DNA from: Litoreibacter roseus
Lineage (GTDB): Bacteria; Pseudomonadota; Alphaproteobacteria; Rhodobacterales; Rhodobacteraceae
NCBI RefSeq assembly: GCF_009811795.1
Contig: NZ_BLJE01000007.1
Location: 105,252-169,251, forward strand
DNA: 64,000 nucleotides
Direction of reading: 5' to 3'
The position numbers and the translations under genes were made by a program. Below are positions 2,739 to 53,014 of the stretch, one piece after another. The notes beneath the pieces were generated by a model, which worked only from the letters and a program-made list of their open reading frames with translations, did not search any database and was not told the DNA's origin. Each line of letters begins with the position of its first letter. Positions within the stretch are counted from its first letter, which is position 1.

Positions 2739-2814
2739 CCCGCTCCGACCGTTGTGACGGGTCGACAGGCTTGCCTTGTCGGCCCTACCCCCATCCAGCA
2801 GAGTAAAGAAAACG

Positions 2815-6139: not shown

Positions 6140-6717
6140 CCCCGTTCACCACACATACCGGGATCGCGGCGGCACTGCCGATGCCGAACCTCGACACCGA
6201 TGTCATAATTCCAAAGCAGTTCCTCAAGCGCATTGACCGCGAAGGTCTGGCCGAGGGTGTGTTTTTTGATTTGTTCAAGGACCAGGAGTTCGTCTTGAAC
6301 CGCCCCCCATGGGACACCGCATCCATCCTGATTTGCGGCGAGAATTTCGGCTGCGGGTCCAGCCGTGAATATGCTGTCTGGGGGCTGATGCAATGGGGCA
6401 TCCGCGCAATCATTGCACCTTCCTTTGCGGGCATCTTCTTTGGAAATTGTGAAAAGAATGGGCTTCTGGCCGTAGACATGCCCGCGGATGATGTCGAAGA
6501 GCTGTCATGGCTTGCGCAGGATCCGGCGACGGCACAGATTGGCATCGATTTGCATCAGCAACGGATCATACAGGGCGGATCCAATTGGCAATTTGATATT
6601 CCTGCCGCGCGAAAGGCTCTGTTGCTAGAAGGCAAGGATCATATTGCCTGCACGTTGGAGCACGAAACTGAAATCGCCACATTTGAGAGACATCATGGCT
6701 CAGACGCCGTGCATTGA
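6136..6717 (+). CDS. leuD: 3-isopropylmalate dehydratase-like small subunit
   Basis: Small (swivel-domain) subunit partnering the upstream large subunit, 193 residues, near the usual 200. Family motifs are present: N-terminal PMPNLDTDVIIPKQFLK, and the substrate-binding CGSSREYAVW segment near residue 73-82. It starts in an ATGA overlap with leuC and is the last gene of the tctCAB-leuCD run; the next gene is 335 bp away behind its own promoter. The substrate reservation given for the large subunit applies here too. Confidence 0.92.
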   Translation: MTPFTTHTGIAAALPMPNLDTDVIIPKQFLKRIDREGLAEGVFFDLFKDQEFVLNRPPWDTASILICGENFGCGSSREYAVWGLMQWGIRAIIAPSFAGIFFGNCEKNGLLAVDMPADDVEELSWLAQDPATAQIGIDLHQQRIIQGGSNWQFDIPAARKALLLEGKDHIACTLEHETEIATFERHHGSDAVH

Positions 6718-6971: not shown

Positions 6972-6999
6972 TTGACAGGGCCAAATTGCCCCCTCTAAA
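6972..6999 (+). promoter_or_regulatory. Predicted sigma-70-type promoter
   Basis: A perfect -35 hexamer TTGACA at 6972-6977 followed, at 16 bp, by TCTAAA (6994-6999; TAAATT at 6996-7001 with 18 bp is an alternative -10). The start of transcription would fall inside or just after the operator palindrome at 7000-7012. Drives the operon that starts at 7053. Confidence 0.55.
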
Positions 7000-7012
7000 T
7001 TGGTACTACCAA
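7000..7012. promoter_or_regulatory. FadR-type GntR operator palindrome
   Basis: TTGGTA-C-TACCAA, a perfect 6+1+6 inverted repeat immediately downstream of the predicted -10 box. This is the operator style known for FadR-subfamily GntR repressors (such as sugar-acid regulators). A FadR-type regulator gene lies in the same operon (15221-15937), which makes negative autoregulation of the whole operon the simplest reading. A looser half-site ACCGGTAG follows at 7013-7020. Confidence 0.65.
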
Positions 7013-7052
7013 ACCGGTAGAATCAAATCGGTAAAATGCCACTAGGGAGGAA

Positions 7053-8093
7053 ATGATGGCATATTTTTGTAAGCTGGCCGCTATGGCTGGCGCGGCGATA
7101 GCTGCGTTCACAGCAATGGGTCCGGCCCCCAGTTACGCTGAAGATGACGACATCAAAATCGCCGTTGCGATGAAGACACAGGTGCAGCGTCGTTGGGCAT
7201 TTGACCGCAAAGCCATGGAGCAAGAAGCCGAGCGTCAAGGCGTGGAGTTGATCTTCCAGTATGCCAATGACAATCCGACACTTCAGGCATCCCAAGTTGA
7301 AAACCTGCTCAGCCAGCAGCCCGATGTGCTGATCCTTGTGCCTGTCGACAGTGCGGCCGCGGGGTCCATCGTGCGGAGCGCACAAGAAGCAGGTGTCCCG
7401 GTGGTGGGCTACGATATTGGCGTCTCAACCGCCAAGCTGGACTACTTCGTCATGCGCAACAACGGGCTGGTGGGTGAGCTGCAAGCCCAGGCCGCAATGG
7501 AATTTGCTCCCAAGGGCAATTTTGCGCTAATCAAAGGCGACCCTGGCAACGATGTGGCACAGTCCATTGCCGCGTCCTATGACCGCATTCTACCAAACGC
7601 CGATGGGGTCGAAATTGTTTTTGACCAATTCGTGAATGGCTGGAGCCCGCAGACGGCGCTGTCCAACGCGGAAAACATTTTGTCAGCCAACGATGACAAC
7701 GTGAAAGCGTTTGTGACAGCGAATGATGGTATGGCATCAGGAGTGGCCCAGGCAATCATCGCACGCGACTTGGCAGGCAAGGTGTTTCTGTCCGGTCTCG
7801 ATGCGGAATCCGCAAACCTGCGCCTGATTGCCGACGGCGTGCAGACGATGACCGTGTGGACTGATTTAACCGATCACGGCATTGCCGCCGTCAAGGCGGC
7901 GGTGTCGATCGCAAAAGGCGAAGAGCCTACATTTTCCGAGATGGTTGACCTTGGGGCGGGTGAAGTGCCGACGCACCTGGTCATCGTGGAAGAAATCAAC
8001 TCCGATAATCTCTGTGACTTTGTGGTTTCCGGTGCTCCCGAAGGCTGGACGTCGGTTGACGAGGTCTTTGACGACCCATCCGCGTGTAACTGA
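7053..8093 (+). CDS. Xylose-type sugar ABC transporter substrate-binding protein
   Basis: A periplasmic-binding-protein-like receptor of 346 residues (type I fold, XylF/RbsB group). A signal peptide covers about residues 1-30, ending in PAPSYA before EDDDIKIAVAM. The mature part has the characteristic hinge pattern DVLILVPVDSAAAGSIV and VPVVGYDIG. The start has GGGAGG 2-7 bases before a tandem ATGATG. It is the first gene of an operon with its ATPase and permease. The XylF-like group binds pentoses or related polyols; the true ligand is unknown, and the neighbouring oxidative enzymes suggest a modified sugar or sugar-like compound. Confidence 0.9.
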   Translation: MMAYFCKLAAMAGAAIAAFTAMGPAPSYAEDDDIKIAVAMKTQVQRRWAFDRKAMEQEAERQGVELIFQYANDNPTLQASQVENLLSQQPDVLILVPVDSAAAGSIVRSAQEAGVPVVGYDIGVSTAKLDYFVMRNNGLVGELQAQAAMEFAPKGNFALIKGDPGNDVAQSIAASYDRILPNADGVEIVFDQFVNGWSPQTALSNAENILSANDDNVKAFVTANDGMASGVAQAIIARDLAGKVFLSGLDAESANLRLIADGVQTMTVWTDLTDHGIAAVKAAVSIAKGEEPTFSEMVDLGAGEVPTHLVIVEEINSDNLCDFVVSGAPEGWTSVDEVFDDPSACN

Positions 8094-8105
8094 CACAAAG
8101 CCAAG

Positions 8106-8134
8106 GTCCTGCGCGGGCTCAGCCCGCGCAGGAC
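8106..8134 (+). other. Perfect 13-bp stem-loop between receptor and ATPase genes
   Basis: GTCCTGCGCGGGC - TCA - GCCCGCGCAGGAC, a perfect inverted repeat 13 bases after the receptor stop codon. There is no T-run after it (ACTTCC follows), so it is a poor terminator; by analogy with other ABC operons it probably protects the 3' end of the receptor message and sets a high receptor-to-ATPase ratio. That role is inference. Confidence 0.75.
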
Positions 8135-8158
8135 ACTTCCACATTTCGGGTTGAGACA

Positions 8159-9754
8159 ATGACACAAGACGTTCGACTTTCAATCGAAGGCATAACCAAG
8201 GAATTTGGCGGCGTGCCAGCCGTGTCCGAGGCAAGGTTTTCGGTTGGCGCTGGAGAGACGTTGGTTCTACTGGGCGAGAATGGCGCGGGCAAATCGACAC
8301 TTATGAAAGTGCTCGCTGGCGTGTATCCACTAGGCACCTATGCTGGATCGTTTCGTCTGGACGGGGTTGAGGCCCAGTTTCGAAACGTCCGTGAAGCCGA
8401 ACAGAACGGGGTCGTTCTGGTTCCCCAAGAGCTTCACGTTGCCCCCAACCTTTCGATCGCTGAAAACATCTTGATGGGAATGCTGCCAACGCGCTTTGGC
8501 ATTGTCGACCGGGCGAAAGCCCGCCAAAAGGCAAAGCAATGTCTCGATTTTTTCGAACTTGATGTCGACCCAGATGTGCCAGCCAAAAGCCTAAGCGCGT
8601 CAGAACAACGGTTAATCATGATATCGGCTGCCTTGGCGAAGTCAGCAGCCAAGGTTTTGATCCTCGATGAGCCGACAGCATCACTCACAGATGGCGAGGC
8701 GGAGCACCTTTTTGAGAAGATGGAGCAGGTGCGCGCTACAGGCGTGGCTACCATCTACATTACACACCGCCTCGATGAAATCGAACGGGTCTGTGATCGG
8801 GCCGTGGTCATGCGCAATGGGGCGGTCGTTTTAGAAACACCGGATGTGCAAGGGCGGCGCAGCGAGTTTATCCGCGCGATGATCGGACATGATCCTGCAG
8901 TTGACGCGTCGCTAAACCGCGCGGCGCCGGGCGCAGAGATCCTTGAGGTTCGTGATCTTTGGGTCCGAGGCAGCTCCGCCACAAGTAAGCCCCATGTCTG
9001 CGGCGTTTCGCTCAGCGCGCGCGCCGGCGAGATCCTCGGCCTTTTCGGCTTGGTCGGCGCAGGCCGGACCGAGCTTGCGAGCGCCGTGTTCGGGGCATGG
9101 CGGGGCGACGTGACTGGCGATGTGCGCATTAACGGCGTCGCAGGGCGGCCGACATCACCTGGTGAAGGGATTGCGCGCGGGGTCGGCATGCTGACCGAAG
9201 ACCGGAAACGCTCTGGCCTGATCGAAGGCCAGTCCGTTTTGCGCAATATCAGCGCAGCCAGCCTTGGGCGCGTCTGCAAGGCGGGCGTGATCCATTCCAA
9301 GAACGAACGAGCGCGTGCCGAATCCTTGGCCAGGGACCTGGACCTGCGGCCGCCAAATATCGACGCAATGGTCGAGAATTTTTCGGGCGGCAATCAGCAA
9401 AAGATCATGCTCGCGCGCTGGATGGCTACAGACCCGGATCTACTCATCGTGGATGAGCCGACCTACGGCGTCGATGTCGGTGCGCGCTACGCGATTTACG
9501 AACGCCTCAGGGCCCTTTCGAAGGACGGCACGGCGATCCTGATGATCTCCAGTGACATCGAAGAGATTATGCATGAAGCAGACCGCATTCTTGTTATGTA
9601 CAAAGGCCAGATCGCAGGTGAATTCGAGCCAGGCGTGTCGCGTCGTGAGCTTATGGCGGCGGCGACCGGCGAAACGCACGTTCCTTCGTTTGATGCCGTC
9701 CCAACTACCATTCCGTTCAAACAAGAGAAACAGAAGATTGGAGTCGCGATATGA
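8159..9754 (+). CDS. Sugar ABC transporter ATP-binding protein (two ATPase domains)
   Basis: A 531-residue tandem ATPase of the XylG/RbsA type that energises sugar import at the inner membrane. The first domain has Walker A GENGAGKST (near residue 40), the degenerate signature LSASEQ and Walker B LILDEPTASL; the second has a degenerate nucleotide loop GLVGAGRTE, signature FSGGNQQK and LLIVDEPTYGVDVGA. Asymmetry of this kind is normal for the family. Its final codons overlap the permease start by ATGA. Confidence 0.94.
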   Translation: MTQDVRLSIEGITKEFGGVPAVSEARFSVGAGETLVLLGENGAGKSTLMKVLAGVYPLGTYAGSFRLDGVEAQFRNVREAEQNGVVLVPQELHVAPNLSIAENILMGMLPTRFGIVDRAKARQKAKQCLDFFELDVDPDVPAKSLSASEQRLIMISAALAKSAAKVLILDEPTASLTDGEAEHLFEKMEQVRATGVATIYITHRLDEIERVCDRAVVMRNGAVVLETPDVQGRRSEFIRAMIGHDPAVDASLNRAAPGAEILEVRDLWVRGSSATSKPHVCGVSLSARAGEILGLFGLVGAGRTELASAVFGAWRGDVTGDVRINGVAGRPTSPGEGIARGVGMLTEDRKRSGLIEGQSVLRNISAASLGRVCKAGVIHSKNERARAESLARDLDLRPPNIDAMVENFSGGNQQKIMLARWMATDPDLLIVDEPTYGVDVGARYAIYERLRALSKDGTAILMISSDIEEIMHEADRILVMYKGQIAGEFEPGVSRRELMAAATGETHVPSFDAVPTTIPFKQEKQKIGVAI

Positions 9755-10899
9755 ATGGGCTTGCCCTTAGCAAAACCGACGTTGGCAAAGGGCTGATTAC
9801 CTGGTCGAGCCTTGCGTCTAAACAGGCGCTTGCGATGGTTGGCGTGTTCCTAGTTCTGGTGATCACGTTCCAGATCATGTCCGATGGATTGTTTCTGACG
9901 CCGCGCAATTTAACCTTGCTGATGCGTCAGGGCGCGATCGTATCGATCGTCGCGATGGGTGTCGCCATTTTGATCATCAAAGGCGAGATTGACCTGTCGA
10001 CCGGCAGCGCCGTCTATCTCTGCGGCGTTGCCGCGGCATTAATGCAGACCAAACTTGGCCTGCCAGTTGTGCCAACGGTCGTCTTGACCATTTTGTGCGG
10101 CATCGTTCTGGGAGCATGGCAAGGTGTTTGGGCTGTCGTTCTCGGGGTGCCTTCATTTGTCGTTACACTCGCGGGCCTGCTCGCGTTCCGTGGCACCGGT
10201 TACTACCTCACTGATGCGGCCACCTTGGCACCGATGTCTCCAAGCTACACGGCGTTGAGCGAGGGCTTTGTGTCAATCCCGATGACCTACACTATACTGG
10301 GTGCAGTTTGGCTTTTGAGTTCAGCTTATCTCTTAATGACGGCTCGGCAAAGCCATGCATCAACTCCAGTAATCCCCCTGGTAGTCTTGACTGCAGTGAT
10401 CGGCGTCAGCGCGTGGATCTTTGTCGGCTATCGCGGCATTCCGAACGCCGTTTTGTGGGTCGCCGTCTGTTTCGCGATCCTTTGGTTCCTGATGGATCGC
10501 ACGGCGTATGGTCGGAACTCCTACTTGATTGGCTCCAATCATGAAGCGGCGCGACTAGCCGGCATTCCAATCAAAAAGTATCTGCTGTCCGGCTTTGTGC
10601 TCATGGGGGTTCTTTATGGCGTCGCCGCCACCCTTATGACCGCGCGGCTCAGTGCGTCGACGCCGACATCTGGCCTCTATCTGGAGCTCGACGCGATCGC
10701 CGCCGCCGTGATTGGCGGGATATCGCTCCGCGGTGGGATTGGCAAGGTCGGAGGCGCACTGGTTGGCGCAGCCCTGCTTGTCACTATCGATAACGGGATG
10801 AGCATCCTGAACATCTCGACCTTCGTCCAGATGATGGTCAAGGGCATGGTTCTGCTCTTGGCACTCGCAGCGGACGTCACACTGAACAAAAAGAAATGA
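9751..10899 (+). CDS. Sugar ABC transporter permease (XylH type)
   Basis: A 382-residue membrane protein with about ten hydrophobic segments, as in XylH (longer than RbsC). The conserved EAA-like region GSNHEAARLAGIPIKKY lies near residue 265 and the C-terminal GGISLRGGIGKVGGALVGA motif near residue 325, both typical of the BPD_transp_2 family. Starts by ATGA overlap with the ATPase gene; its stop overlaps a possible start of the dehydratase gene. Confidence 0.93.
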   Translation: MNGLALSKTDVGKGLITWSSLASKQALAMVGVFLVLVITFQIMSDGLFLTPRNLTLLMRQGAIVSIVAMGVAILIIKGEIDLSTGSAVYLCGVAAALMQTKLGLPVVPTVVLTILCGIVLGAWQGVWAVVLGVPSFVVTLAGLLAFRGTGYYLTDAATLAPMSPSYTALSEGFVSIPMTYTILGAVWLLSSAYLLMTARQSHASTPVIPLVVLTAVIGVSAWIFVGYRGIPNAVLWVAVCFAILWFLMDRTAYGRNSYLIGSNHEAARLAGIPIKKYLLSGFVLMGVLYGVAATLMTARLSASTPTSGLYLELDAIAAAVIGGISLRGGIGKVGGALVGAALLVTIDNGMSILNISTFVQMMVKGMVLLLALAADVTLNKKK

Positions 10900-10916
10900 C
10901 AAGGGACGCTGCAATC

Positions 10917-12092
10917 ATGAACCCAAGAGACATCTCTTCGCCTGACCGCCTGCTCAAAATCAGATCGGTCGAAGCCTTTCCGATCAGCAGCCCGGTCAAA
11001 AACGGCCCTATTCTCGGCATAGGCCAACTGACCAAGCGCGAATCTGTGGTGGTCCGGATCGAAACCGAGGACGGGATCGTTGGTTACGGAGAAGCGCATC
11101 ACGGACGAGCCGCCGCATCGGTGGCACATCTGATCAACCACACTCTGCAACACTTCGCGGTCGGTAAGTCGGCGGCGGACGTGGTTGGGATTTGGGATGC
11201 CATCTATACGATGCAGCTTAAAAGCCACGGCATGGGTGCCGCGTCGAGCATCGGGATGAGCGGTATCGATCTGGCATTGTGGGACATACGCGGCAAGGCC
11301 GTCGGGTGGCCACTCTACCGGCTTCTGGGCGGCATGTCGCAGGACATTCCAGCCTATGCGGGTGGCGTTTCTCTGGGTTGGCAGCCGGCCGCGCAGCTTG
11401 TGGACGAAGTGCAAGCCGCGCTGGACGAAGGCTACAAAGCTGTGAAGCTTCGGGTTGGCGACAATCATGTGCGCGACGTGGAACGTGTTGCAGCGGTCCG
11501 GGCAGCCATCGGTGATGATGTGTCGATCATGGTCGACGCCAATACAAACTACGACGCGGCAACGTTCCGCCGCGCGTTGCCCGGCTTTGTCGCGCACGAT
11601 GTGTTCTGGATCGAAGAACCATTTGCGCCGCACGACATCGACAACTATCGCTTGGCGGCGCACCTTTCTTCGATCCCGCTGGCAGCCGGGGAAAATCACT
11701 ACACCCGCTTCGAGTTCAATCGCGTTATCGAAGACGGAAAGATCACGATACTACAGCCAGATGTCTCAAAAACCGGTGGGATCACTGAATCCATGCGCAT
11801 TGCGGCCGCCGCATCCGCGTGGAAAAGGATGATCTGCCCGCATACCTCGACCACGGGTCTCAACATGGCAGCCAGCGTGCATCTGCTCTGTGCCATCGAC
11901 AACGCCGGATACTTCGAAGGCGACGTCTCTGTCAGCAACCCGTTTCGAGATGAATTGACGAGCACGCCCTACATGGTTGGTGCCAACGGATGTGTCCGTC
12001 CGCTTGAGCAACCCGGGATCGGTGTCGAAGTCGACGAAGATTACCTGCGTGGCAATCCGACAACGGAGGGACTTTCCTATGCTGCACATTGA
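10917..12092 (+). CDS. Enolase-superfamily enzyme (mandelate racemase/muconate lactonizing type)
   Basis: A probable acid-sugar dehydratase or epimerase of 391 residues. N-terminal capping domain (about 1-130) is followed by a TIM barrel with Lys177-x-Arg179, metal-ligand segments Asp207 (MVDANTNY), EEP at 233-235 and Glu259 (AGENHY), and the Asp282/His309 dyad (QPDVSKTGG, CPHTSTTG) of the mandelate racemase subgroup. The second Lys of the common KxK motif is Arg. The ATG at 10917 has AAGGGA ten bases upstream; an earlier ATG at 10896 overlaps the permease stop and would add seven residues. Its 3' end overlaps the aldehyde dehydrogenase start by 14 bp. Substrate unknown. Confidence 0.88.
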   Translation: MNPRDISSPDRLLKIRSVEAFPISSPVKNGPILGIGQLTKRESVVVRIETEDGIVGYGEAHHGRAAASVAHLINHTLQHFAVGKSAADVVGIWDAIYTMQLKSHGMGAASSIGMSGIDLALWDIRGKAVGWPLYRLLGGMSQDIPAYAGGVSLGWQPAAQLVDEVQAALDEGYKAVKLRVGDNHVRDVERVAAVRAAIGDDVSIMVDANTNYDAATFRRALPGFVAHDVFWIEEPFAPHDIDNYRLAAHLSSIPLAAGENHYTRFEFNRVIEDGKITILQPDVSKTGGITESMRIAAAASAWKRMICPHTSTTGLNMAASVHLLCAIDNAGYFEGDVSVSNPFRDELTSTPYMVGANGCVRPLEQPGIGVEVDEDYLRGNPTTEGLSYAAH

Positions 12093-13539
12093 TGCATTCG
12101 TACCTGGCGATAGTCCATGCCTCGTGATCGGAGACAGCTGGATACACGCAGATCAGCGCGAATATGTTCCAGTCATAAACCCCGCGACTGAAGAGACTGT
12201 TTGTCATGCACCGGTTGCGACAGCGGATGATATTCAGCTGGCTATCGCCACCTCTGTGCAAGGATTTGAAACGTGGCGCAGAACGCTGCCGATTGACCGG
12301 TCGCGTGTGCTGCGCGGTGCAGCGGAACGGATCCGCGAGCGCGCAGACGACATCGCGAGGCTCATGACACTCGAGCAAGGCAAACCCCTGGCCGAGGCGC
12401 GTGCGGAGACGCTGTCCACAGCAGACCTCTTCGAGTGGTTCAGCGAGGAGGCGCGCCGCTCTTACGGGCGTATTGTAGCGAGTCAGGTGCCTGGCGTTGC
12501 GCTCAATGTGATGGCCGAACCGATTGGGCCTGTGGCTGCTTTCACAGCCTGGAACTTTCCGATGGTGGTTCCTGGCAGAAAGATCGCAGCGGCCATCGCT
12601 GCAGGATGTTCGATAATCATTAAACCGTCGGAGGAAACACCTCTCTGTGTCGTCGAAATAGCGCGCTGCCTCCGCGATGCCGGGCTGCCCAATGGTGTTT
12701 TGGCCGTTCTCTACGGTGATCCGGCGCAAATATCCGAGACGCTGCTGGCCGCTCCTGAGATCCGCAAGGTCGCGATCACGGGGTCTACCCGGGTCGGTAA
12801 GATTCTTGCACGGCTTGCTGCCGACACGATGAAACCCGGCACCTACGAGCTGGGTGGTCACAGCCCAGTTCTGGTCTTTGGCGATTCGGATGCCGAGGGT
12901 GCCGCGGCCCAGCTTGCCGTGGCGAAATACAGGAACGCGGGGCAGGTCTGCACCTCGCCGTCACGCTTTTTTGTGCATCGTGACATCGTAGAATCGTTCA
13001 CCGAAAGCTACCTTGCCCACGTCGACAAGATCGTCGTTGGCGATGGTCTCCAGGACGGTGTGGCGATGGGGCCGCTGTCGAATGAACGCCAGTTGCTACA
13101 TATCGTGGACCTGGTTTCGGACGCTGTGACGCATGGCGCGCAGCTGGCCGCAGGCGGTCATCGTATTGGCAATACCGGCTATTTCTATGAGCCTACCGTT
13201 CTTTTGAACGTGCCTGATACCGCTCGCATCATGCGTGAAGAGCCATTCGGTCCAGTGACGGCCATTCAGACCTTCGACACTACAGATGACGCGATTGCCA
13301 AGGCCAACATGCTCGACGTTGGCCTAGGGAGTTACGTGTTCTCGTCCTCGCCCGAGACAATGATCCGTGTTGCCGGTGAGCTGCAAGCGGGGATGGTGGG
13401 TGTGAATACCTGTTTGATCGCCCATCACGAGGCCCCCTTCGGCGGCGTCAACCAAAGCGGATATGGTCGAGAGGGTGGGATCGAAGGGCTGGACGCGTAC
13501 CAAATCAAGAAACTTGTCGCGGCCAGGGCCGTGGCCTGA
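12079..13539 (+). CDS. NAD(P)-dependent aldehyde dehydrogenase (semialdehyde type)
   Basis: An aldehyde dehydrogenase of 486 residues, the normal family length, probably acting on a semialdehyde or ketoglutarate-semialdehyde-like intermediate. Catalytic Glu257 (YELGGHSP) and Cys291 (NAGQVCTSP) are present, as is AFTAWNFPM (oxyanion Asn). The start at 12079 is preferred because ACGGAGGG lies at 12063-12070 and because the upstream extension overlaps the preceding gene without similarity to the family. SSADH-like residues suggest oxidation of a short carbon-chain semialdehyde; the pairing with a dehydratase resembles non-phosphorylative sugar-acid pathways. Confidence 0.92.
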   Translation: MLHIDAFVPGDSPCLVIGDSWIHADQREYVPVINPATEETVCHAPVATADDIQLAIATSVQGFETWRRTLPIDRSRVLRGAAERIRERADDIARLMTLEQGKPLAEARAETLSTADLFEWFSEEARRSYGRIVASQVPGVALNVMAEPIGPVAAFTAWNFPMVVPGRKIAAAIAAGCSIIIKPSEETPLCVVEIARCLRDAGLPNGVLAVLYGDPAQISETLLAAPEIRKVAITGSTRVGKILARLAADTMKPGTYELGGHSPVLVFGDSDAEGAAAQLAVAKYRNAGQVCTSPSRFFVHRDIVESFTESYLAHVDKIVVGDGLQDGVAMGPLSNERQLLHIVDLVSDAVTHGAQLAAGGHRIGNTGYFYEPTVLLNVPDTARIMREEPFGPVTAIQTFDTTDDAIAKANMLDVGLGSYVFSSSPETMIRVAGELQAGMVGVNTCLIAHHEAPFGGVNQSGYGREGGIEGLDAYQIKKLVAARAVA

Positions 13540-13567
13540 AAACGAAGTTACACGGAGGAATTTAGAG

Positions 13568-14668
13568 ATGAAACTTGGAATGTTCATGATGCCGCTGCAC
13601 CCGCCGCATCGCCCGATGCACGAAACCTACGACGAAGATCTTGCCAAGGTCGTGCACGCTGACAAGGTGGGATTTGACGAGGTCTGGATCGGCGAGCACT
13701 TCACCGCATCGACCGAGCCGATTGCCAATGCAATGACGTTTCTTGCCGCGGCGCTGCCGTTGACCAAGAACATCATGCTTGGCACCGGCGTTGTGAATCT
13801 GCCGAACCATAACCCGGTGATCGTGGCGGCTGAGGCGGCACAGTTCGACCACATGGCCAAAGGCCGCTTCCTCTTCGGGATCGGTCCTGGCGGGCTTGCC
13901 AGCGATTTTGAGGTTTTTGGCAACGAAGATCCCGAGGCGCGCGGCGAAAAGATGCTCGAGGCGTATGAGGCGATACGCTACATCTGGGCCAATGATCCGC
14001 CGTATCGCTTCCAGGGCAAGCACTACAACTTCCACATCACTGAAAACATCATTCCCGAAATGGGTATCGGCTTTATGCCCAAGCCTTATCAGAACCCGGC
14101 CCCCGATATCGGGCTGAGCGCGATGAGCCCGTTTTCCGGCAGTGTGAAACAGGCGGCCAGAAAAGGTTGGAGCCCGATTTCGGCAAACTTCGTGCCCGAA
14201 TACAGCGTAGCCAGTCACTGGAAAAAATTCCTTGAAGGCTGCGAAGAGGCAGGGATAGCTCCAGACGGCAATCGGTGGCGTGTCGCCCGCAACATCATTA
14301 TCGCGGACAGCGATTCCGAGGCCGAAGACCTCGCTCACGATCCAATGGGCAGCACGCACTATTACTTCGATTATCTGTGGAAAGCCCTGTGCGGTGCGAA
14401 TTACAGCGTAGCAATGAAGCCCGATCCAAAGATGGCCGATGAAGATGTAAAGCTGGACGATGTCATCTCGCAACTGGTGATCTACGGCAGCAAGGAGACT
14501 GTAACGGAGAAGTTGATCGCCTTCCGCGAAAACGTTGGGCCGTTTGGAACGCTCTTGCAGGCCGCGGTCGATGGGTCCGGCAAAAACGGTGATGCGGAAC
14601 GCCGAACAATGGCAGCGATGTCTGATTTTGTCATGCCGCGCCTGGCGGGAGCACTGGTTGATGCCTAG
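13568..14668 (+). CDS. Luciferase-like (LLM) flavin-dependent monooxygenase
   Basis: A 366-residue bacterial-luciferase-fold enzyme that would use reduced FMN and oxygen. It starts MKLGMFMMPLHPPHRP, with family segments FDEVWIGEHF, IMLGTGVVNLPNHNP and GRFLFGIGPGG. The start codon at 13568 has GGAGG ten bases upstream. It overlaps the flavin reductase gene by 8 bp, which argues for a two-component oxygenase. Closest family reading is the limonene-1,2-monooxygenase/alkanal group, but members act on very diverse substrates, including sulfonates and aldehydes; the co-operon sugar importer hints at a sugar-like or small polar substrate. Confidence 0.9.
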   Translation: MKLGMFMMPLHPPHRPMHETYDEDLAKVVHADKVGFDEVWIGEHFTASTEPIANAMTFLAAALPLTKNIMLGTGVVNLPNHNPVIVAAEAAQFDHMAKGRFLFGIGPGGLASDFEVFGNEDPEARGEKMLEAYEAIRYIWANDPPYRFQGKHYNFHITENIIPEMGIGFMPKPYQNPAPDIGLSAMSPFSGSVKQAARKGWSPISANFVPEYSVASHWKKFLEGCEEAGIAPDGNRWRVARNIIIADSDSEAEDLAHDPMGSTHYYFDYLWKALCGANYSVAMKPDPKMADEDVKLDDVISQLVIYGSKETVTEKLIAFRENVGPFGTLLQAAVDGSGKNGDAERRTMAAMSDFVMPRLAGALVDA

Positions 14669-15218
14669 CGCGGAGCATATTGAATCGAGCGCTAATTCCG
14701 CCGATGCGTACGGCGAAGCAGTGGAGGGATTTCGGCATGCCATGTCGAAATACCCCGCAACAGTGAACGTTATTACGACCGGATCCGGCGAGGCGCGGCG
14801 AGGCTTCACTGCTACAGCTGTTTTCAGTGCGACGATGGATCCGCCTGCCATTGGGATTTGTGTTAACAAGTCCGTCGATGCGCATGACGCGCTTAGGCCG
14901 GACTCGTCCTTCTGCGTGAATGTTCTGGCGGTGGAGCAGCAAGGTATCGCCAACCGCTTTGCAGCACGTGATGGGTCGAAAGGGGCCAGCCGGTTCGAAC
15001 ACGATACATGGGACATTCTCGTCACAGGATCGCCATGCCTCCGCGGTGCCTTGGCGAATGTGGATTGCAAGGTGTCCCAGTTCATCGACATCGGGACGCA
15101 CACGCTGATCCTCGGTGACGTGGTGAGCGTCCGGTCCGATCGTGTTCAAAACCCCTTGTTGTATTTTGACCGTGGGTTCCGGCAGTTGGCGACCGAAAGC
15201 TTGGAAATGGGAGAGTAA
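14661..15218 (+). CDS. NAD(P)H:flavin reductase (FMN-reductase domain)
   Basis: A 185-residue split-barrel flavin reductase, the partner that supplies reduced FMN to the LLM oxygenase. Visible motifs: FRHAMSKYPATVNVITT, GFTATAVFSATMDPPAIGIC (flavin-binding) and the C-terminal LLYFDRGFR. The ATG at 14661 overlaps the oxygenase stop; the longer frame upstream is inside the oxygenase gene and does not fit the family. Overlap implies coupled translation of the two components. Confidence 0.9.
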   Translation: MPSAEHIESSANSADAYGEAVEGFRHAMSKYPATVNVITTGSGEARRGFTATAVFSATMDPPAIGICVNKSVDAHDALRPDSSFCVNVLAVEQQGIANRFAARDGSKGASRFEHDTWDILVTGSPCLRGALANVDCKVSQFIDIGTHTLILGDVVSVRSDRVQNPLLYFDRGFRQLATESLEMGE

Positions 15219-15220
15219 GA

Positions 15221-15937
15221 ATGAAGCGGGTCGATAACCAGGTGACGAAGACAATTTCGAACCTTGTTCATTTCCTCAATCAACGAGGATACGAGCCAGG
15301 CGAACGTCTGCCATCCGAGCGGATATTGGCGGAGCGGTTTGAAGTCACACGCGGCGTTATCCGAGAGGCGTTGATGTCGCTTGAGTTGATGCGCTACATC
15401 CAGCGGCGCCCGAATTCGGGCATCTTCATGCGGGCCGAAGACGAGGCGGAAACCAGTATCGAAGCGCTGGTGATGTACTCGAACATCGGTATCCCCTTTG
15501 GACATGACACTGATCTGCAATGTCTCGAAGTCAGACGTTTGCTTGAAGTGCAGGCAGTGCGGATCGCGTGCGAACGTCGAACAGATGAAGACTTGGCAGA
15601 GCTAACGCGCATTGCAGAGGTTGCAGCCCACAGCACGGGAGATGGCTCGGATCTGTCAAAGCTGGACTACGACTTCCATATGCAGATATTCGAGGCCACT
15701 CAGAACAAGGTGCTCGTGCAACTTGTGACGCCGTTCTACCTGATGTCCGAGATGCGGCGGGAACGCTTCTTTCGCAACAAGGAGAATTTCTTGAATAGTC
15801 ACCAGCAGCACCTGCAACTGATTGATGCAATAGCCGCGCGTGACACAAAGGCGGCGGCTGGCCTCATGGATCGGCACATTGGCAATGTCGAAAGCTATTT
15901 TGGCGCATCTGAGGATGCCGAAGAATTCGCTGACTAG
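15221..15937 (+). CDS. FadR-subfamily GntR transcriptional regulator
   Basis: A 238-residue regulator with an N-terminal winged helix (about 8-70; PGERLPSERILAERFEVTRGVIREAL) and an all-helical FCD effector domain (about 95-225). FCD proteins usually bind carboxylates or sugar acids. It lies two bases after the flavin reductase gene, within the operon, and a matching palindrome is at 7000-7012 before the first gene. I infer autoregulated repression relieved by a pathway intermediate. Confidence 0.93.
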   Translation: MKRVDNQVTKTISNLVHFLNQRGYEPGERLPSERILAERFEVTRGVIREALMSLELMRYIQRRPNSGIFMRAEDEAETSIEALVMYSNIGIPFGHDTDLQCLEVRRLLEVQAVRIACERRTDEDLAELTRIAEVAAHSTGDGSDLSKLDYDFHMQIFEATQNKVLVQLVTPFYLMSEMRRERFFRNKENFLNSHQQHLQLIDAIAARDTKAAAGLMDRHIGNVESYFGASEDAEEFAD

Positions 15938-15964
15938 CGCGAACGGCAAAAGGGAGGCCCAATC

Positions 15965-16621
15965 ATGTTTTTTGGTGGATCATTTGACGTCGTATCGCGC
16001 GTCGAACCGGTCAGACAGCTTGCGTCGACAGAAGAGATTATCGCGGAATGTAGTGCGGGGCAAATGTTCATCCTGGTGGACAACCCGGATCGTGAAAATG
16101 AGGGCGATCTGGTGATCGCCGGCGCTTATGCAACACAGAGCGCAATCGCCTTTATGGCGCGGCTTGGGCGCGGCTTGATCTGCGTTGCCGTGCCTGGCGC
16201 GGTCGCGGACCGGTTTGAGTTAGCGTTCCAAGACAGTAGCAATGTAGGCGAAGGCTATACCGCGTTCACAACGTCAATCGACGCAAGATACGGGATTACA
16301 ACTGGGATATCCGCACAGGACCGGGCGGCAGCCATCGATATCTTGAACGATCCGGAAAAAAGTGCCGCCGATATTGTCACCCCGGGTCACATTTTTCCTC
16401 TGGTCGCAAAAAGCGGCGGTGTACTCGAACGCCCCGGCCATACGGAAGCGAGTGTTGATCTCGCCAAGGCCGCGGGTGCCGGTGAGACCGCCGTAATCTG
16501 CGAAATCCTTGGCGATGACGGCGAGCCCTTGCGCTTGCCTGCCCTGATCGACTTTGCGGGCAAGCACGGCATGAAGATCGGCACAATTGCGGACCTCATT
16601 GCATGGCGGGAAGCGCAGTGA
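15965..16621 (+). CDS. ribB: 3,4-dihydroxy-2-butanone-4-phosphate synthase
   Basis: Single-domain RibB of 218 residues that makes the four-carbon precursor of riboflavin from ribulose 5-phosphate. Active-site segments are intact: DRENEGDL, TTGISAQDR and the GHTEASVDL motif. There is no fused GTP cyclohydrolase II domain. The gene has AGGGAGG just before its ATG. Its position inside a catabolic operon with an FMN-dependent oxygenase, rather than with other rib genes, suggests a dedicated flavin supply. It could also merely be a second copy; the rest of the genome is not visible. Confidence 0.92.
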   Translation: MFFGGSFDVVSRVEPVRQLASTEEIIAECSAGQMFILVDNPDRENEGDLVIAGAYATQSAIAFMARLGRGLICVAVPGAVADRFELAFQDSSNVGEGYTAFTTSIDARYGITTGISAQDRAAAIDILNDPEKSAADIVTPGHIFPLVAKSGGVLERPGHTEASVDLAKAAGAGETAVICEILGDDGEPLRLPALIDFAGKHGMKIGTIADLIAWREAQ

Positions 16622-16666
16622 AGCTGTGCTTGGCACCACTCGACTAGGATTTGACGGCAGGCTGTC

Positions 16667-18223
16667 ATGAAAACCACTTCACCCAGTCCCGTGTTCCGGG
16701 ATATGGGACAACACGGCTTTGATCCCGAAACTGATTTGTCTTCTGATGTTCTGATCATTGGCAGCGGAATGGGAGGCGCTGCATTTGCTGCCGGCCTAGC
16801 CTCGACCGGTCTCAAAGTACGCATGCTCGAGGCGGGTGATTTCATCCCGGACGCGCCGGACAACCGGACGCCGCAGGCCGTCTATCACGAAATGCGCTTT
16901 CACAGCCGGGATCGGTGGCTTGACAAAAACGACAGAGCCTTCGTGCCCGGCACCTATGAATGGGTAGGCGGGAATAGTAAGTTCTTCGGAGCCGTCCTAT
17001 ACCGCTTTCGCGAAATCGATTTTCATGAACGGCACTATGCCGAGGGCATCTCACCGGCTTGGCCTTTCGATTACGGTGAACTGCAGCCTTGGTATGAAAA
17101 AGCGGAGCGTATGCTACATGTTCGGGGCGTTACGGGTGAGGACTCCACGGAACCTTCGGGGCCGTATGGATACGACTTCCCCAAAGTTCCGGATGAGCCT
17201 GCTATTGCCGAGTTACGCCGCAGGCTGGAGATAGACGGAGGGATCGGCACGGCGACACTGCCGCTCGGTGTCGACACAGACGCATGGCTTGCCGAGGGGC
17301 AGGGGCCCTGGGACGGCTACCCTGACGCGACCTGTCAGGGCAAGATGGAGGCGGAATCCAGATTGCTTCCGCTCGCAGCGCAAAACAAGCGCTTTAAGCT
17401 GATCACCAGCGCCCGTGCGACGCGCCTGCTTGTGGAGCCGGGTGGGTCGCGGATCGCGAGTGTGGTCTTTGAACGCGACGGACGGGAATGGACCCACAAC
17501 TCAAAGCTTGTCGTTGTTGCGGCAGGTGCAGTGAATAGTGCGGCTCTGCTTTTGCGGTCAGGGGTTGCAAACAGCTCTGATCAGGTCGGGCGCAACTTCA
17601 TGAACCACATATTCAGCGTTCTGATCGCCATCGATCCACGTTTCCGCAACACAAGCGCCTATCAGAAGACCATCACATCAAACGCCTTCTACGATACGCA
17701 AAACGACACCGGCCAAGCACTGGGCAATATCCAGCTGCTTGGGCGGCTCTATGGCGACACGCTTGCACATGACGTCAAGTATTTGCCGCGCTTTGCATTG
17801 AACTGGATCGCAGATCACTCGGCGCATTTCTTTCTGCAAACCGAAGATGTTCCAAAGCCGGAGAACCGAGTTACGTTGAAAGGTGACCGGATCAAGCTGG
17901 AATGGCACCGCGACCACATCCCCACCCATCAGACCTTTGTCAAACGGGCGAAGCAGCTATTGCGCGATGCGCGGTTTCCTATCGTTTTGCATCGGTTGAT
18001 GGATGAGGCACTGCCCTATCACCAATGCGGCACCGTATGTATGGGAAGCGATTCGAAAACCTCGGTATTGAATCCTCAAAATGTCAGCTGGGATCACCCC
18101 AATCTGATAGTTGCGGACGCCAGCGCTCTTGTTTCGTCCGCTGGCGTGAACCCGGCACTGACGGTTGCCGCTCTTTCCCTGCGGGCTGCGCATCATGCGC
18201 TTGATAGGTTCGCCCAACTCTAA
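16667..18223 (+). CDS. GMC-family FAD oxidoreductase
   Basis: A 518-residue FAD-dependent alcohol or sugar oxidase/dehydrogenase. The N-terminal dinucleotide fold shows LIIGSGMGGAAFAAGLAS and acidic ribose-binding Glu in RMLEAGDF; the catalytic His452 (YHQCGT) and Asn495 (GVNPAL) close the C-terminal part, as in pyranose-oxidase-like GMC members. There is no signal peptide, so it is probably cytoplasmic. It follows ribB by 45 bases. The pyranose-oxidase resemblance together with the sugar importer makes a sugar-like substrate plausible; this is inference. Confidence 0.88.
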   Translation: MKTTSPSPVFRDMGQHGFDPETDLSSDVLIIGSGMGGAAFAAGLASTGLKVRMLEAGDFIPDAPDNRTPQAVYHEMRFHSRDRWLDKNDRAFVPGTYEWVGGNSKFFGAVLYRFREIDFHERHYAEGISPAWPFDYGELQPWYEKAERMLHVRGVTGEDSTEPSGPYGYDFPKVPDEPAIAELRRRLEIDGGIGTATLPLGVDTDAWLAEGQGPWDGYPDATCQGKMEAESRLLPLAAQNKRFKLITSARATRLLVEPGGSRIASVVFERDGREWTHNSKLVVVAAGAVNSAALLLRSGVANSSDQVGRNFMNHIFSVLIAIDPRFRNTSAYQKTITSNAFYDTQNDTGQALGNIQLLGRLYGDTLAHDVKYLPRFALNWIADHSAHFFLQTEDVPKPENRVTLKGDRIKLEWHRDHIPTHQTFVKRAKQLLRDARFPIVLHRLMDEALPYHQCGTVCMGSDSKTSVLNPQNVSWDHPNLIVADASALVSSAGVNPALTVAALSLRAAHHALDRFAQL

Positions 18224-18254
18224 TTCTCTAAGCTAAGAAAAGGACCCCAGAAAA

Positions 18255-18572
18255 ATGTTGCTTCACTGCGTTTACCTGTCGTTGAAACCCGAGACTGAAG
18301 ATCGTGATTTGGCTGAGCTTATGTCAGCCTTGTCCAGCTTGTCGGACGAAATTGACGGTATGGGCTGCGTTGATCATGGCCCAAATCGAGACTTTGAAAG
18401 CAAATCCGAGGACTTTCCATATGGTTTCGTAATTCCCTTCAATAACGCTGAAGCGCTTGCGCGTTATGCTGAAAATCCAAAGCACAAGCGGATTGCGGAG
18501 GGCTTGATTGCAAGCTGTAAAGGCGGCGCCGACGGCATTGTAGTCTTTGACCTGGAAACTGGGGCATCATAG
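18255..18572 (+). CDS. Dabb (stress-responsive A/B barrel) domain protein
   Basis: A 105-residue protein that fits the dimeric alpha-beta barrel (Dabb) family: LLHCVYLSLKPE at the N-terminus and a central helix with FVIPFNNAEALARYAENPKHK, a pattern shared by these ferredoxin-like proteins. Dabb proteins bind small hydrophobic ligands; some are cyclases. It is the last gene of the operon. A separate role in this pathway cannot be read from sequence. Confidence 0.82.
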   Translation: MLLHCVYLSLKPETEDRDLAELMSALSSLSDEIDGMGCVDHGPNRDFESKSEDFPYGFVIPFNNAEALARYAENPKHKRIAEGLIASCKGGADGIVVFDLETGAS

Positions 18573-18846: not shown

Positions 18847-19758
18847 CTACGACTTCAACTCTTTCCGCATTTTTCCTGGAGTTGAGCCTAGCTTGTCTCG
18901 AAAAACGTCTGTCATATGGCTTTGTGAGGAAAACCCACACCGTATGGCCACAGCAGCGAGGGGTGTCGATGTTGTCGCAAGCTCGTGTTGCGCTCGCTCA
19001 AGTCGTCTAGATAAGACATATTGATAGGGTGAACATCCTGTTGCTTCTCGGAAGTCCTTGGAAAACTGGCTTAAGGGCAGATTAACAAGCTCTGCAAGGT
19101 CTTGCGTATTAAATGCTCTACCGAGGTTTTCAACGATGTATTCGTCAATCTTGGTTATTTGCTTGCGTGTCAGTCCGAATGATTTCCTTGTGAGCGGCTC
19201 TTCAGCTAGCTGTAAGAGCCTTGCCACTATGGATTGCCAAAAGGCGTCTACCATCAGATCGTATGCCACTCCCTCATTCGCCGCTTCTTTCCAGAGGTTC
19301 TGAATAAGGACACGCAATGTCAGATCTTGAATAAAGGACTGCCCAACCAAGCGGTCGAAGACTGCAGTAGATGGGATGCCGTGCTCTTGCAGGAGGGACT
19401 TCAGCGTCTTTTGAGGACAAGCAATGACGATGATGTCGTTAGCACCACGAACCTTGTGAGAAGCGGACACTCCAGCAGGCGTAATCAAACTGCTTCCTGG
19501 ATGGGATAATTTTTCACCAACCCACCCATCGCCAAAGTCCCAGTCGCTTGGCACGTTTTTGCCAAGACCCATACCAATTGTGAAATCGTCGACAGCAGGT
19601 GTCACTTGTTCGAAAGCCTCTGCTGAGATGCGCACTGCTTCTATGCCGAATGCGCCACCTTCACGAAATTCCTTTTTGAAATTCGCGTGGCTCTCTGATC
19701 TTGTCAGAAATTTCGATATGGAACGTTTGTAGCTACTTCCTGCATGGCTGGTTAACAT
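18847..19758 (-). CDS. AraC-family regulator, paralogue 1
   Basis: A 303-residue regulator with an unassigned N-terminal sensing region (about 1-200) and a two-helix-turn-helix AraC domain at the C-terminus (SQFSKDFREATGCSPYQYVL and AAVAIRCGFSSQSHMTDVFR). It lies six bases downstream of paralogue 2, so the two are likely co-transcribed. The sensing part shares the pattern FxxNFRxGG-FGxEA with paralogue 2. Nearby targets are not obvious; the operon ending at 18572 is convergent. Confidence 0.9.
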   Translation of the reverse strand: MLTSHAGSSYKRSISKFLTRSESHANFKKEFREGGAFGIEAVRISAEAFEQVTPAVDDFTIGMGLGKNVPSDWDFGDGWVGEKLSHPGSSLITPAGVSASHKVRGANDIIVIACPQKTLKSLLQEHGIPSTAVFDRLVGQSFIQDLTLRVLIQNLWKEAANEGVAYDLMVDAFWQSIVARLLQLAEEPLTRKSFGLTRKQITKIDEYIVENLGRAFNTQDLAELVNLPLSQFSKDFREATGCSPYQYVLSRRLERAQHELATTSTPLAAVAIRCGFSSQSHMTDVFRDKLGSTPGKMRKELKS

Positions 19759-19764
19759 ACTAAA

Positions 19765-20670
19765 TTATTCCTCAAGTGAGTAACGAAAGGTTCCAGGTGT
19801 GGAACCGAGTTTGCTGCGAAAAATATCGGTCATATGACTTTGGGATGAAAACCCGCATTCCAATGCGATAGCCGCTAAAGGTTTCTGGCTATGCGCAAGG
19901 GCGTCTTGAGCTGCTGCAAGACGTTGTTTTAAGACATATTGATAGGGTGAAAAGCCCGTGGCTTCCTTAAAGTCTCTGGAGAATTGCGAAATTGGTAGAT
20001 TGGCAATTTCTGCTAAGTCAGTGGTGGCAAATGACTTAGCTATGTTTTCGCGAACAAATTCATCGATCGCAACCAATTGCCGGTGCGTAAGCCCGAAACT
20101 GACGACTCTAGGTTGCTTGTCTGCGAGACTAAGAAGGCACGAGATAACTTTTTGCCAGTGGGCATCAACCAGCAAGCCGGAAGAAGGGTTGGCACACTTG
20201 CTCTCTTTCCAAATGGCTAGCATGCTGAATTTTATGTCGGCGTTGTAAATGAAGCGACGTTGCGTCAGGGAATCAAATACCGTGCTTGGATCAAGTCCAT
20301 ATGGCTCCAGGAGCCTGGTGAGAGTATCCTGTGGGCATCCTATGTGAAGTAGATCATGAGACCCGTGGACATCGTAGTCCACAACGACATTCGATGGGAT
20401 TGCTATGATGCTCCCAACGTTTGCGGTTGTTTCACCCAACCAGCGATCTCCGAAATTCCAATTCGCTATGACATCTTTTGTGAGGCCCATGCCAAGCTGA
20501 AGCTCTGGCAAAGCGGGAGTCGAAGCTTGGTAAGCCTCCATTTTAGCGCGCAAGGCTTCCACGCCAAATGAACCGCCCGACCGAAAATTTTGTTCAAAGC
20601 CCTTATGGCTATTGGCCTCAGCGTAGAATTTGGAAATCTGTAGTTTTCTGGAGACGGAGGCAGCGTTCAT
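19765..20670 (-). CDS. AraC-family regulator, paralogue 2
   Basis: A 301-residue AraC regulator close in sequence to paralogue 1. The ATG at 20670 is preferred; the frame could start seven codons earlier only at a TTG. The DNA-binding domain contains SQFSRDFKEATGFSPYQYVL and LECGFSSQSHMTDIFR. The N-terminal region is shared with paralogue 1 but only loosely with paralogue 3. It is separated from paralogue 3 by 183 bp, which may hold a promoter for paralogues 2 and 1. Confidence 0.88.
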   Translation of the reverse strand: MNAASVSRKLQISKFYAEANSHKGFEQNFRSGGSFGVEALRAKMEAYQASTPALPELQLGMGLTKDVIANWNFGDRWLGETTANVGSIIAIPSNVVVDYDVHGSHDLLHIGCPQDTLTRLLEPYGLDPSTVFDSLTQRRFIYNADIKFSMLAIWKESKCANPSSGLLVDAHWQKVISCLLSLADKQPRVVSFGLTHRQLVAIDEFVRENIAKSFATTDLAEIANLPISQFSRDFKEATGFSPYQYVLKQRLAAAQDALAHSQKPLAAIALECGFSSQSHMTDIFRSKLGSTPGTFRYSLEE

Positions 20671-20853
20671 AATCCAATCTCTGCTTCCCAATTACTGATG
20701 AAGATACGGCCTAAGGTCCTTGATAGCGCCTTTTTGAGTTCAAGTGGCACTAATTGGAAAAATAGTTTGAGGGGGATACAAATCAACCGCAGAGCCAATC
20801 AGCTCGCCCCGGGGATGCGCTTGTGAGGGCCGCCTGGATGCTTTGCTCAGCAA

Positions 20854-49145: not shown

Positions 49146-49147
49146 CC

Positions 49148-53013: not shown

Positions 53014-53014
53014 G

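What the first reader, a model, noticed from the sequence alone, without database searches (positions are those of the whole stretch)
7000..18572. Uncharacterised sugar-uptake plus flavin-oxygenase catabolic operon with its own RibB
Eleven genes in one direction and mostly overlapping: xylose-type ABC importer, mandelate-racemase-type dehydratase, semialdehyde dehydrogenase, LLM flavin monooxygenase with flavin reductase, FadR repressor, RibB, a pyranose-oxidase-like GMC enzyme and a Dabb protein. I know of no described pathway with this set. The logic suggests oxygen-dependent cleavage or desulfonation/oxidation of a sugar-like substrate, then acid-sugar dehydration and semialdehyde oxidation. 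Sulfosugar monooxygenation and C-glycoside oxidation are two analogies in which sugar import meets flavin or GMC chemistry; neither is proven here.
Basis: partly seen in the sequence, partly recalled or inferred. Interest (0 to 1): 0.78.

Follow-up and report, generated by a model that had tools for sequence, protein, structure and literature searches.

The report
Predicted oxygen-driven sugar-ring cleavage operon
A bacterial operon of eleven genes likely imports a sugar-like ring compound, is predicted to turn one ring alcohol into a ketone and, with oxygen and a reduced vitamin B2 cofactor, would split the ring at that ketone before finishing the product as acids; no described pathway that we found combines these enzymes.

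Summary
The eleven genes are real: one tandem + strand cluster (7053-18572) behind a promoter-like site and one perfect FadR-type palindrome (7000-7012). The core is conserved: LLM, GMC and dehydratase homologues (57-73% identical) lie on contigs of equal length in three cases, and two of the three in two more; two MAGs carry dehydratase-LLM-FadR operons. The LLM model is nearest to 3,6-diketocamphane monooxygenase, a type II Baeyer-Villiger enzyme, well ahead of sulfonate and sulfoquinovose monooxygenases. In one clade of six relatives the LLM sits with a vicinal-diol dehydrogenase, flavin reductase and acyl-CoA genes, in five of six also semialdehyde dehydrogenase, RibB and 3-oxoadipyl-CoA thiolase: the set expected for diol -> hydroxyketone -> oxo-acid -> adipate. 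The window version has a sugar-type GMC enzyme and a mandelate-racemase-type dehydratase instead. Best reading: Baeyer-Villiger cleavage of a polyhydroxylated ring (cyclitol- or sugar-like), with a second RibB for flavin supply. Reactions are inferred and the substrate is unknown; the host has IolD and no KdgD or GarL over cut-off, so plain myo-inositol and glucarate are less likely. Desulfonation and C-glycoside analogies are not supported. New variant of a known kind.

The parts
6972..7001 (+). sigma-70-like promoter (TTGACA, 18 nt, TAAATT)
   Evidence: 10 of 12 consensus matches; the scan as a whole found 4 against 5.8 expected in shuffles, so weak alone; its place before the operon and next to the palindrome is what counts
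7000..7012 (.). predicted FadR-type operator TTGGTACTACCAA (perfect 6-1-6 inverted repeat)
   Evidence: the only such site in 64 kb, though the looser consensus occurs 6 times and the pattern was chosen after reading the sequence; with 3 mismatches allowed it is not enriched (5 against 5.55). L038 has TGGTCCGACCA starting 71 nt upstream of its MR gene; L034 has none
7053..8093 (+). sugar-binding protein (XylF-like, CUT2-type importer)
   Evidence: Pfam PF13407; XylF model 223.2 bits, below its 389.55 cut-off; best solved relative is the D-xylose-binding protein 3m9w
8159..9754 (+). ABC importer ATPase (two ABC stretches)
9751..10899 (+). ABC importer permease
10896..12092 (+). mandelate-racemase-subgroup enzyme, predicted hydroxy-acid dehydratase
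   Evidence: putative catalytic positions (roles recalled) K184, R186, D214, E240, E266, D289, H316 invariant in the 119 listed homologues, the best of 5573 hits
12079..13539 (+). aldehyde (semialdehyde) dehydrogenase
   Evidence: Pfam PF00171; nearest NCBIfam model is the SSADH subfamily, 465.8 against a cut-off of 646.35 bits
13568..14668 (+). luciferase-like monooxygenase, predicted type II Baeyer-Villiger monooxygenase
   Evidence: run on the protein from 13580, four residues short of the likely start
14661..15218 (+). flavin reductase partner
   Evidence: PF01613; nearest models RutF and HpaC, below cut-off
15221..15937 (+). GntR/FadR-family regulator
   Evidence: 48-49% identical regulators in L034 and L038
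15965..16621 (+). RibB, second copy in the genome, predicted flavin supply
16667..18223 (+). GMC enzyme, predicted to oxidise a ring alcohol to a ketone
   Evidence: H452 and N495 invariant in 18 of 18 aligned
18255..18572 (+). Dabb protein, role unknown, often near this GMC family
   Evidence: PF07876; Dabb homologue in 11 of 15 GMC loci read in the family, 0 of 2 GMC plasmid loci, 0 of 91 LLM and MR loci

Best explanation
[quoted passage not shown] The aldehyde dehydrogenase would then oxidise the aldehyde end to a (poly)hydroxy acid, and the mandelate-racemase-type enzyme would dehydrate it to a 2-keto-3-deoxy acid for central metabolism. The operon's RibB, a second ribB copy in the genome, would raise flavin supply for the diffusible FMNH2 that such two-component enzymes need, and the FadR-type protein would repress from the palindrome at 7000-7012 until an intermediate binds. 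Shown: gene content and order, recurrence of the core on equal-length contigs, families and predicted folds, conserved putative catalytic positions, the palindrome, the second ribB copy. Inferred: every reaction, the order of steps, the substrate and the regulation. Dabb has no assigned role.
For: 1) LLM: nearest solved sequence is 3,6-diketocamphane 1,6-monooxygenase (E 2.4e-29), and its model (pLDDT 89.7) matches that enzyme at TM 0.84-0.85, ranks 1-4. 2) Function by company: in a clade of six LLMs (L002, L003, L029, L031, L040, L041; 100/100 support) all six loci have a 2,3-butanediol-dehydrogenase homologue (the L002 query itself, others 78-87%), a reductase, an acyl-CoA dehydrogenase and a hydratase/3-hydroxyacyl-CoA dehydrogenase; five of six have a thiolase like that of L002 (which passes pcaF, 634.1 against 597 bits), five of six the ALDH, and five of six ribB while L003 has RibA and RibH. 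That is the set expected for a cyclic vicinal diol -> hydroxyketone -> oxo-acid -> adipate (pathway recalled). 3) Same slot, different family: downstream of FadR stands GMC in the window, a Zn-alcohol dehydrogenase in L038 and an SDR in L034. 4) Core conserved: contigs of equal length carry LLM, GMC and MR at 14751, 16799 and 21117 nt, LLM and GMC at 938309, GMC and MR at 33341; the window LLM clade of eight has 100/100 support. 5) GMC model is closest to fructose and glucose dehydrogenases. 6) Putative MR catalytic positions intact in 119 of 119 listed homologues. 7) A site of the same form stands before the L038 operon. 8) A more distant LLM (42%, L006) also has GMC-family genes beside it.
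Against: No activity is tested and the substrate is not identified. Same-contig linkage is inferred from equal contig lengths, not from contig names. L034 carries a PhnW equivalog (475.8 against 400.8 bits) about 135 nt before its MR gene, which a pure cyclitol reading does not predict. No PF01613-type reductase was found in L034 and L038 (L034 has a Flavodoxin_2 protein). Most LLM relatives of the GTDB scan have none of these partners in the stretch read: reductase in 26 of 80 loci, ALDH 13, ribB 9, MR 2, GMC 0, Dabb 0. Flavin contacts of the camphor enzyme are not kept in the alignment: Ser44 aligns with Gly and His10 with Met, an invariant His lying three residues on (residues from passages of PMC4631483). 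KdgD and GarL are below cut-off in the host, so the fate of the dehydrated acid is not assigned. The host has IolD over cut-off, so myo-inositol itself is probably handled elsewhere. The GMC region 452-495, which holds the invariant His and Asn, has pLDDT below 50. MR relatives at 44-59% sit in other contexts. L038 is a long branch, so its pairing with L034 is unsure.
Confidence: 0.52

Rival explanations
1. Sulfosugar or sulfonate monooxygenation: the LLM cleaves a C-S bond (SmoC/SsuD-like) and the other enzymes process the desulfonated sugar.
For: Sugar importer, LLM and flavin reductase together, as in the sulfo-SMO pathway (recalled); a weak match to the dimethylsulfone monooxygenase model SfnG (45.7 against 382.95 bits).
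Against: Foldseek ranks the sulfoquinovose monooxygenase 7oh2 42nd (TM 0.61) and an alkanesulfonate monooxygenase 38th, against TM 0.84-0.85 for the camphor type II Baeyer-Villiger enzyme; no alkanesulfonate monooxygenase model among the 25 shown of 30 NCBIfam matches; no sulfite-handling or sulfoquinovosidase family among the operon's Pfam matches.
Confidence: 0.06
2. C-glycoside or glycoside oxidation: the GMC enzyme makes a 3-keto-glycoside whose aglycone is eliminated, and the LLM acts on another compound.
For: GMC family; C-glycoside oxidases appear among structural matches (8qve rank 10, 7dve rank 33).
Against: Closer fold matches are fructose and glucose dehydrogenases; no deglycosidase was recognised among the eleven genes, Dabb being unassigned; the recurrence of LLM, GMC and MR on equal-length contigs argues for one pathway.
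Confidence: 0.1
3. Flavin catabolism: the LLM is a riboflavin-lyase-like enzyme and RibB and the reductase belong to flavin turnover.
For: A two-component flavin-dependent enzyme removes the ribose in the published riboflavin pathway (enzyme type recalled; start of the abstract of PMC12746152 in the listing); rib genes recur near LLM relatives, with a riboflavin kinase in L002 and L003.
Against: RibB makes rather than degrades flavin; no riboflavin kinase or ribokinase family among the operon's Pfam matches; relatives carry diol and adipate genes. RcaE itself was not compared.
Confidence: 0.05
4. Two modules in one transcript: MR-ALDH-LLM-FadR is one pathway, and GMC-Dabb, found in the family without LLM, is a separate sugar-oxidation module placed behind it.
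For: GMC occurs in the family without LLM (Dabb in 11 of 15 GMC loci read, LLM in 0 of 15); L034 and L038 have MR-LLM-FadR without GMC.
Against: LLM and GMC recur on equal-length contigs in four cases, and the GMC proteins of the five contigs are nearer to the window's (57-69%) than those of the family genomes sampled (at most 52%).
Confidence: 0.2

Closest known systems
3,6-diketocamphane 1,6-monooxygenase (type II Baeyer-Villiger, CAM plasmid)
   Same: LLM fold and near full-length sequence similarity (26-27% over the Foldseek alignments, TM 0.84-0.85), FMNH2 from a separate reductase (passages of PMC4631483)
   Different: Terpene substrate; no sugar importer, GMC enzyme, MR dehydratase or RibB (recalled); His10 and Ser44 align with Met and Gly
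trans-1,2-cyclohexanediol degradation (diol, 2-hydroxycyclohexanone, 6-oxohexanoate, adipate; recalled)
   Same: Same logic of alcohol to hydroxyketone to aldehyde-acid to acid; LLM relatives at 53-54% sit in the matching gene set
   Different: Window has a GMC enzyme instead of a diol dehydrogenase and a dehydratase instead of adipate beta-oxidation; no gene-level report among the 12 papers listed
SAR202 FMNO and enolase-superfamily hypothesis (PMC5395668, PMC6946804; passages)
   Same: Luciferase-type Baeyer-Villiger enzymes, short-chain and choline-dehydrogenase-like alcohol-oxidising enzymes, and mandelate-racemase-family enzymes discussed for oxidising resistant compounds
   Different: Described there as paralogue expansions (the word operon does not occur in the main text of PMC6946804); here they form one operon with importer, reductase, RibB and regulator
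lux-rib gene arrangement of luminous bacteria (recalled; one search was a search listing only)
   Same: Riboflavin-synthesis genes beside an LLM two-component flavin enzyme
   Different: No light; RibB alone, in a catabolic operon

Membership tests
type II Baeyer-Villiger monooxygenase | luciferase-like TIM-barrel closest to the diketocamphane monooxygenases | tested here: met
type II Baeyer-Villiger monooxygenase | separate flavin reductase supplying FMNH2 | tested here: met
   a reductase gene overlaps the LLM gene by 8 nt; that it feeds the LLM is inferred. Reductase within 500 nt in 27 of 83 LLM loci
type II Baeyer-Villiger monooxygenase | flavin-contact residues of 3,6-DKCMO (His10, Ser44) | tested here: inconclusive
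   Ser44 aligns with Gly and His10 with Met; an invariant family His lies three residues on, and a gapless pairwise alignment may be off there
type II Baeyer-Villiger monooxygenase | ketone to ester or lactone activity | not testable with these tools
   needs assay
mandelate-racemase subgroup of the enolase superfamily | three metal ligands, KxR motif and His-Asp dyad (roles recalled) | tested here: met
   K184, R186, D214, E240, E266, D289, H316 invariant in the 119 listed homologues
galactonate dehydratase (NF010624) and other curated enolase-superfamily models | score above the curated cut-off | tested here: not met
   best is galactonate dehydratase at 201.4 against 311 bits
sulfoquinovose monooxygenase (SmoC) | closest fold | tested here: not met
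   7oh2 at rank 42, TM 0.61
C-glycoside oxidase gene cluster | GMC closest to C-glycoside oxidases, with a deglycosidase | tested here: not met
   fructose and glucose dehydrogenases rank above; no deglycosidase recognised
riboflavin catabolic (rca) cluster | LLM closest to RcaE | not tested
   RcaE was not compared
riboflavin catabolic (rca) cluster | riboflavin kinase and ribokinase beside it (recalled) | tested here: not met
   no such family among the operon's Pfam matches
adipate-forming cyclic diol cluster | diol dehydrogenase and 3-oxoadipyl-CoA thiolase beside the LLM | tested here: not met
   both present in relatives L002, L003, L031, L040, L041 but not among the window operon's families

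The most novel reading that the evidence does not exclude
A Baeyer-Villiger route for cyclitols or carbohydrates: bacteria that open a polyhydroxylated carbon ring by making an inosose-like ketone with a GMC enzyme, cutting it with an FMNH2-dependent luciferase-fold monooxygenase to a uronic-acid-like semialdehyde, and then running the acid through an aldehyde dehydrogenase and an enolase-superfamily dehydratase, with a dedicated RibB to feed the flavin: an oxygen-dependent counterpart of myo-inositol oxygenase built from unrelated enzymes.
Probability: 0.3. Interest if true: 0.78.

Novelty: new variant of a known kind. Interest (0 to 1): 0.56.

Why it matters
If right, it would carry luciferase-fold Baeyer-Villiger chemistry, known from terpenes and proposed for resistant marine carbon, over to sugar-like substrates in one regulated operon. 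It would give the SAR202 idea, that such monooxygenases and enolase-superfamily enzymes act on resistant ring compounds, a compact operon in which to test it, and a testable assignment for a luciferase-like family with 425 tblastn-confirmed places in the GTDB scan. It also suggests a simple lead, an extra RibB beside a two-component flavin enzyme, for spotting pathways with heavy demand for free reduced flavin.

Tried and rejected
Desulfonation reading: disfavoured on the fold ranking. C-glycoside reading: its enzymes rank below simple sugar dehydrogenases. Riboflavin catabolism: considered because rib genes recur beside LLM relatives; disfavoured, not tested by sequence. FMN riboswitch as explanation of the RibB: no Rfam match in the window and none in the host genome (the same search rang in 7 of 14 control genomes). 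MR as a marker of the pathway: its relatives (44-59%) in 8 of 8 class-level loci show no LLM in the stretch read, so the MR alone says nothing; two of these eight stretches, L124 and L125, are cut by contig ends. A plain inositol-to-glucarate route: weakened by IolD over cut-off and KdgD and GarL below it in the host. A search of the order of another genome for the LLM gave 0 of 76, with no positive control. Literature: of the listings no title or abstract start described this gene set; one search asked for at least three of six terms and returned no paper. Only PMC5395668, PMC6946804 and PMC4631483 were opened, as passages. The cap for metagenome contigs was 0 and no such scan was tried, so the 14,751, 16,799 and 21,117 nt contigs could not be read.
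Full report
OBSERVATION. With the likely starts, neighbours overlap by 4, 4, 14 and 8 nt at four junctions and are 2 to 65 nt apart at the other six. A sigma-70-like promoter (6972-7001; the scan found 4 sites against 5.8 expected, so it is weak alone) and one perfect 6-1-6 palindrome of the FadR-type consensus (consensus recalled; 7000-7012) lie before the first gene. The palindrome is the only perfect one in 64 kb, while the looser consensus occurs six times; it was chosen after reading the sequence, and allowing three mismatches it is not enriched (5 against 5.55). Of the nine proteins run against NCBIfam only RibB passes a curated cut-off.

IS THE SET CONSERVED? The protein searches list the best 120 of 1887 LLM, 4113 GMC and 5573 MR hits. 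Within these lists three contig lengths recur in all three: 14751 (LLM 70%, GMC 67%, MR 73%), 16799 (69%, 66%, 71%) and 21117 (72%, 57%, 68%). Length 938309, a Hyphomicrobiaceae MAG, recurs for LLM (66%) and GMC (63%), and 33341 for GMC (69%) and MR (78%). Equal length is taken as the same contig; names were not available. The window LLM and seven relatives (P0001-P0007, four of them on these contigs, three unplaced) form one clade with 100/100 support. In the GTDB scan (the best 80 of 425 places) two more loci, L034 and L038, have MR, LLM and FadR in that order on one strand, L038 with the ALDH between MR and LLM. They pair with 99/88 support, L038 being a long branch, and the MR-LLM link needs two changes on the tree. 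L038 has TGGTCCGACCA starting 71 nt upstream of its MR gene, the same TGGT-N3-ACCA form as the window's site; L034 has none. The operon's LLM type was not seen elsewhere in the host's family: 23 of 295 sampled genomes, the host included, have an LLM at E <= 1e-60; the others reach at most 44% identity over the full length (52% for one fragment), and the one sampled genome of the same genus has none at that threshold.

WHAT THE LLM DOES. By sequence and by model (pLDDT 89.7) the closest solved protein is 3,6-diketocamphane monooxygenase, a type II Baeyer-Villiger enzyme; luciferases, an alkanesulfonate monooxygenase (rank 38) and sulfoquinovose monooxygenase (rank 42, TM 0.61) follow. Two flavin contacts of the camphor enzyme, His10 and Ser44, align with Met and Gly, so cofactor details differ or the alignment is off there. 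The strongest functional clue is the company of relatives. In a clade of six (L002, L003, L029, L031, L040, L041; 100/100) all six have a 2,3-butanediol-dehydrogenase homologue, a flavin reductase beside the LLM, an acyl-CoA dehydrogenase and a hydratase/3-hydroxyacyl-CoA dehydrogenase; five of six have the ALDH, five a 3-oxoadipyl-CoA-thiolase homologue and five ribB; L003 has RibA and RibH instead (L002 and L003 supplied the queries). The L002 thiolase passes the pcaF cut-off (634.1 against 597 bits). A six-carbon diacid at the end, a vicinal-diol dehydrogenase at the start and a semialdehyde dehydrogenase in the middle fit cleavage of a cyclic 2-hydroxyketone to an oxo-acid. This inference uses the recalled pathway of 1,2-cyclohexanediol; none of the 12 papers listed reports its genes by title or abstract start.

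WHAT THE WINDOW VERSION DOES. The same slots are refilled. Downstream of FadR the alcohol-oxidising enzyme is GMC here, a Zn-alcohol dehydrogenase in L038 and an SDR in L034. The GMC model is closest to fructose and glucose dehydrogenases, though its region 452-495, which holds the invariant H452 and N495, is predicted poorly. Beta-oxidation is replaced by an MR-subgroup enzyme whose putative catalytic positions are invariant in the 119 listed homologues. The importer's binding protein is of the XylF kind but scores below the XylF cut-off. Together this suggests a ring that still carries several hydroxyls. The order of ALDH and MR steps, and the substrate, are inferred.

RIBB. The genome holds a second ribB-like gene (55% identical, in a 403-codon frame), so the operon's copy is extra. 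ribB lies within the fetched stretch in 10 of 83 LLM loci and in 0 of 25 GMC and MR loci. I read this as flavin supply for a diffusible FMNH2 pair, as recalled for lux-rib; it is not shown.

DABB. A Dabb homologue occurs in 11 of the 15 GMC loci that I read in the family (15 of 42 places other than the host's), in 0 of 2 GMC plasmid loci (L004 is cut just behind the GMC gene) and in 0 of 91 LLM and MR loci. Its role is unknown.

AGAINST THE READING. Most LLM relatives have none of the partners in the stretch read (reductase in 26 of 80 loci, ALDH 13, ribB 9, MR 2, GMC 0, Dabb 0). L034 has a PhnW equivalog about 135 nt before its MR gene. MR relatives at 44-59% occur in 8 of 8 class-level loci without LLM. 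In the host KdgD and GarL fall below cut-off and IolD passes. GMC occurs in the family without LLM (0 of 15), so GMC-Dabb may be a second module.

LITERATURE. SAR202 papers (PMC5395668 and PMC6946804, passages) propose luciferase-type Baeyer-Villiger enzymes and discuss enolase-superfamily expansions for resistant dissolved carbon; the passages that I read describe no such operon. PMC4631483 (passages) was used for the camphor enzyme.

VERDICT. Observation confirmed; interpretation partly supported; best reading a Baeyer-Villiger cleavage pathway for a polyhydroxylated ring, with the substrate open.

Noticed in passing
window 1704-6717: Tripartite tricarboxylate transporter genes (TctC, TctA, a small gene between TctA and the next pair) followed by an aconitase-family large and small subunit pair, ending 335 nt before the operon's first gene; possibly a separate acid-uptake unit.
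   Followed up: partly
window 18847-21747, - strand: Three genes in tandem that look like diverged copies of one AraC-type regulator (only the first was tested by Pfam).
   Followed up: no
window 47521-62545: HipA/HipB-looking pair (by eye) and a mobile-looking block with a sub-threshold ParB_N match and a strawberry-notch helicase; the best DNA matches of the helicase part are Roseobacter-group plasmids at about 74%.
   Followed up: partly
window 34416-38695: RND-type efflux pair by appearance (membrane fusion protein and a 1038 aa pump), read by eye only.
   Followed up: no
L034:7404-8600: A PhnW (2-aminoethylphosphonate transaminase) equivalog in line with MR-LLM-FadR; hints that some relatives start from an amine.
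   Followed up: partly
   Followed up: partly
L119, L120, L125: MR homologues (44-57%) near a hydantoinase/oxoprolinase-looking gene and, in L119 and L120, branched-chain ABC genes, read by eye; same family, probably another substrate.
   Followed up: no
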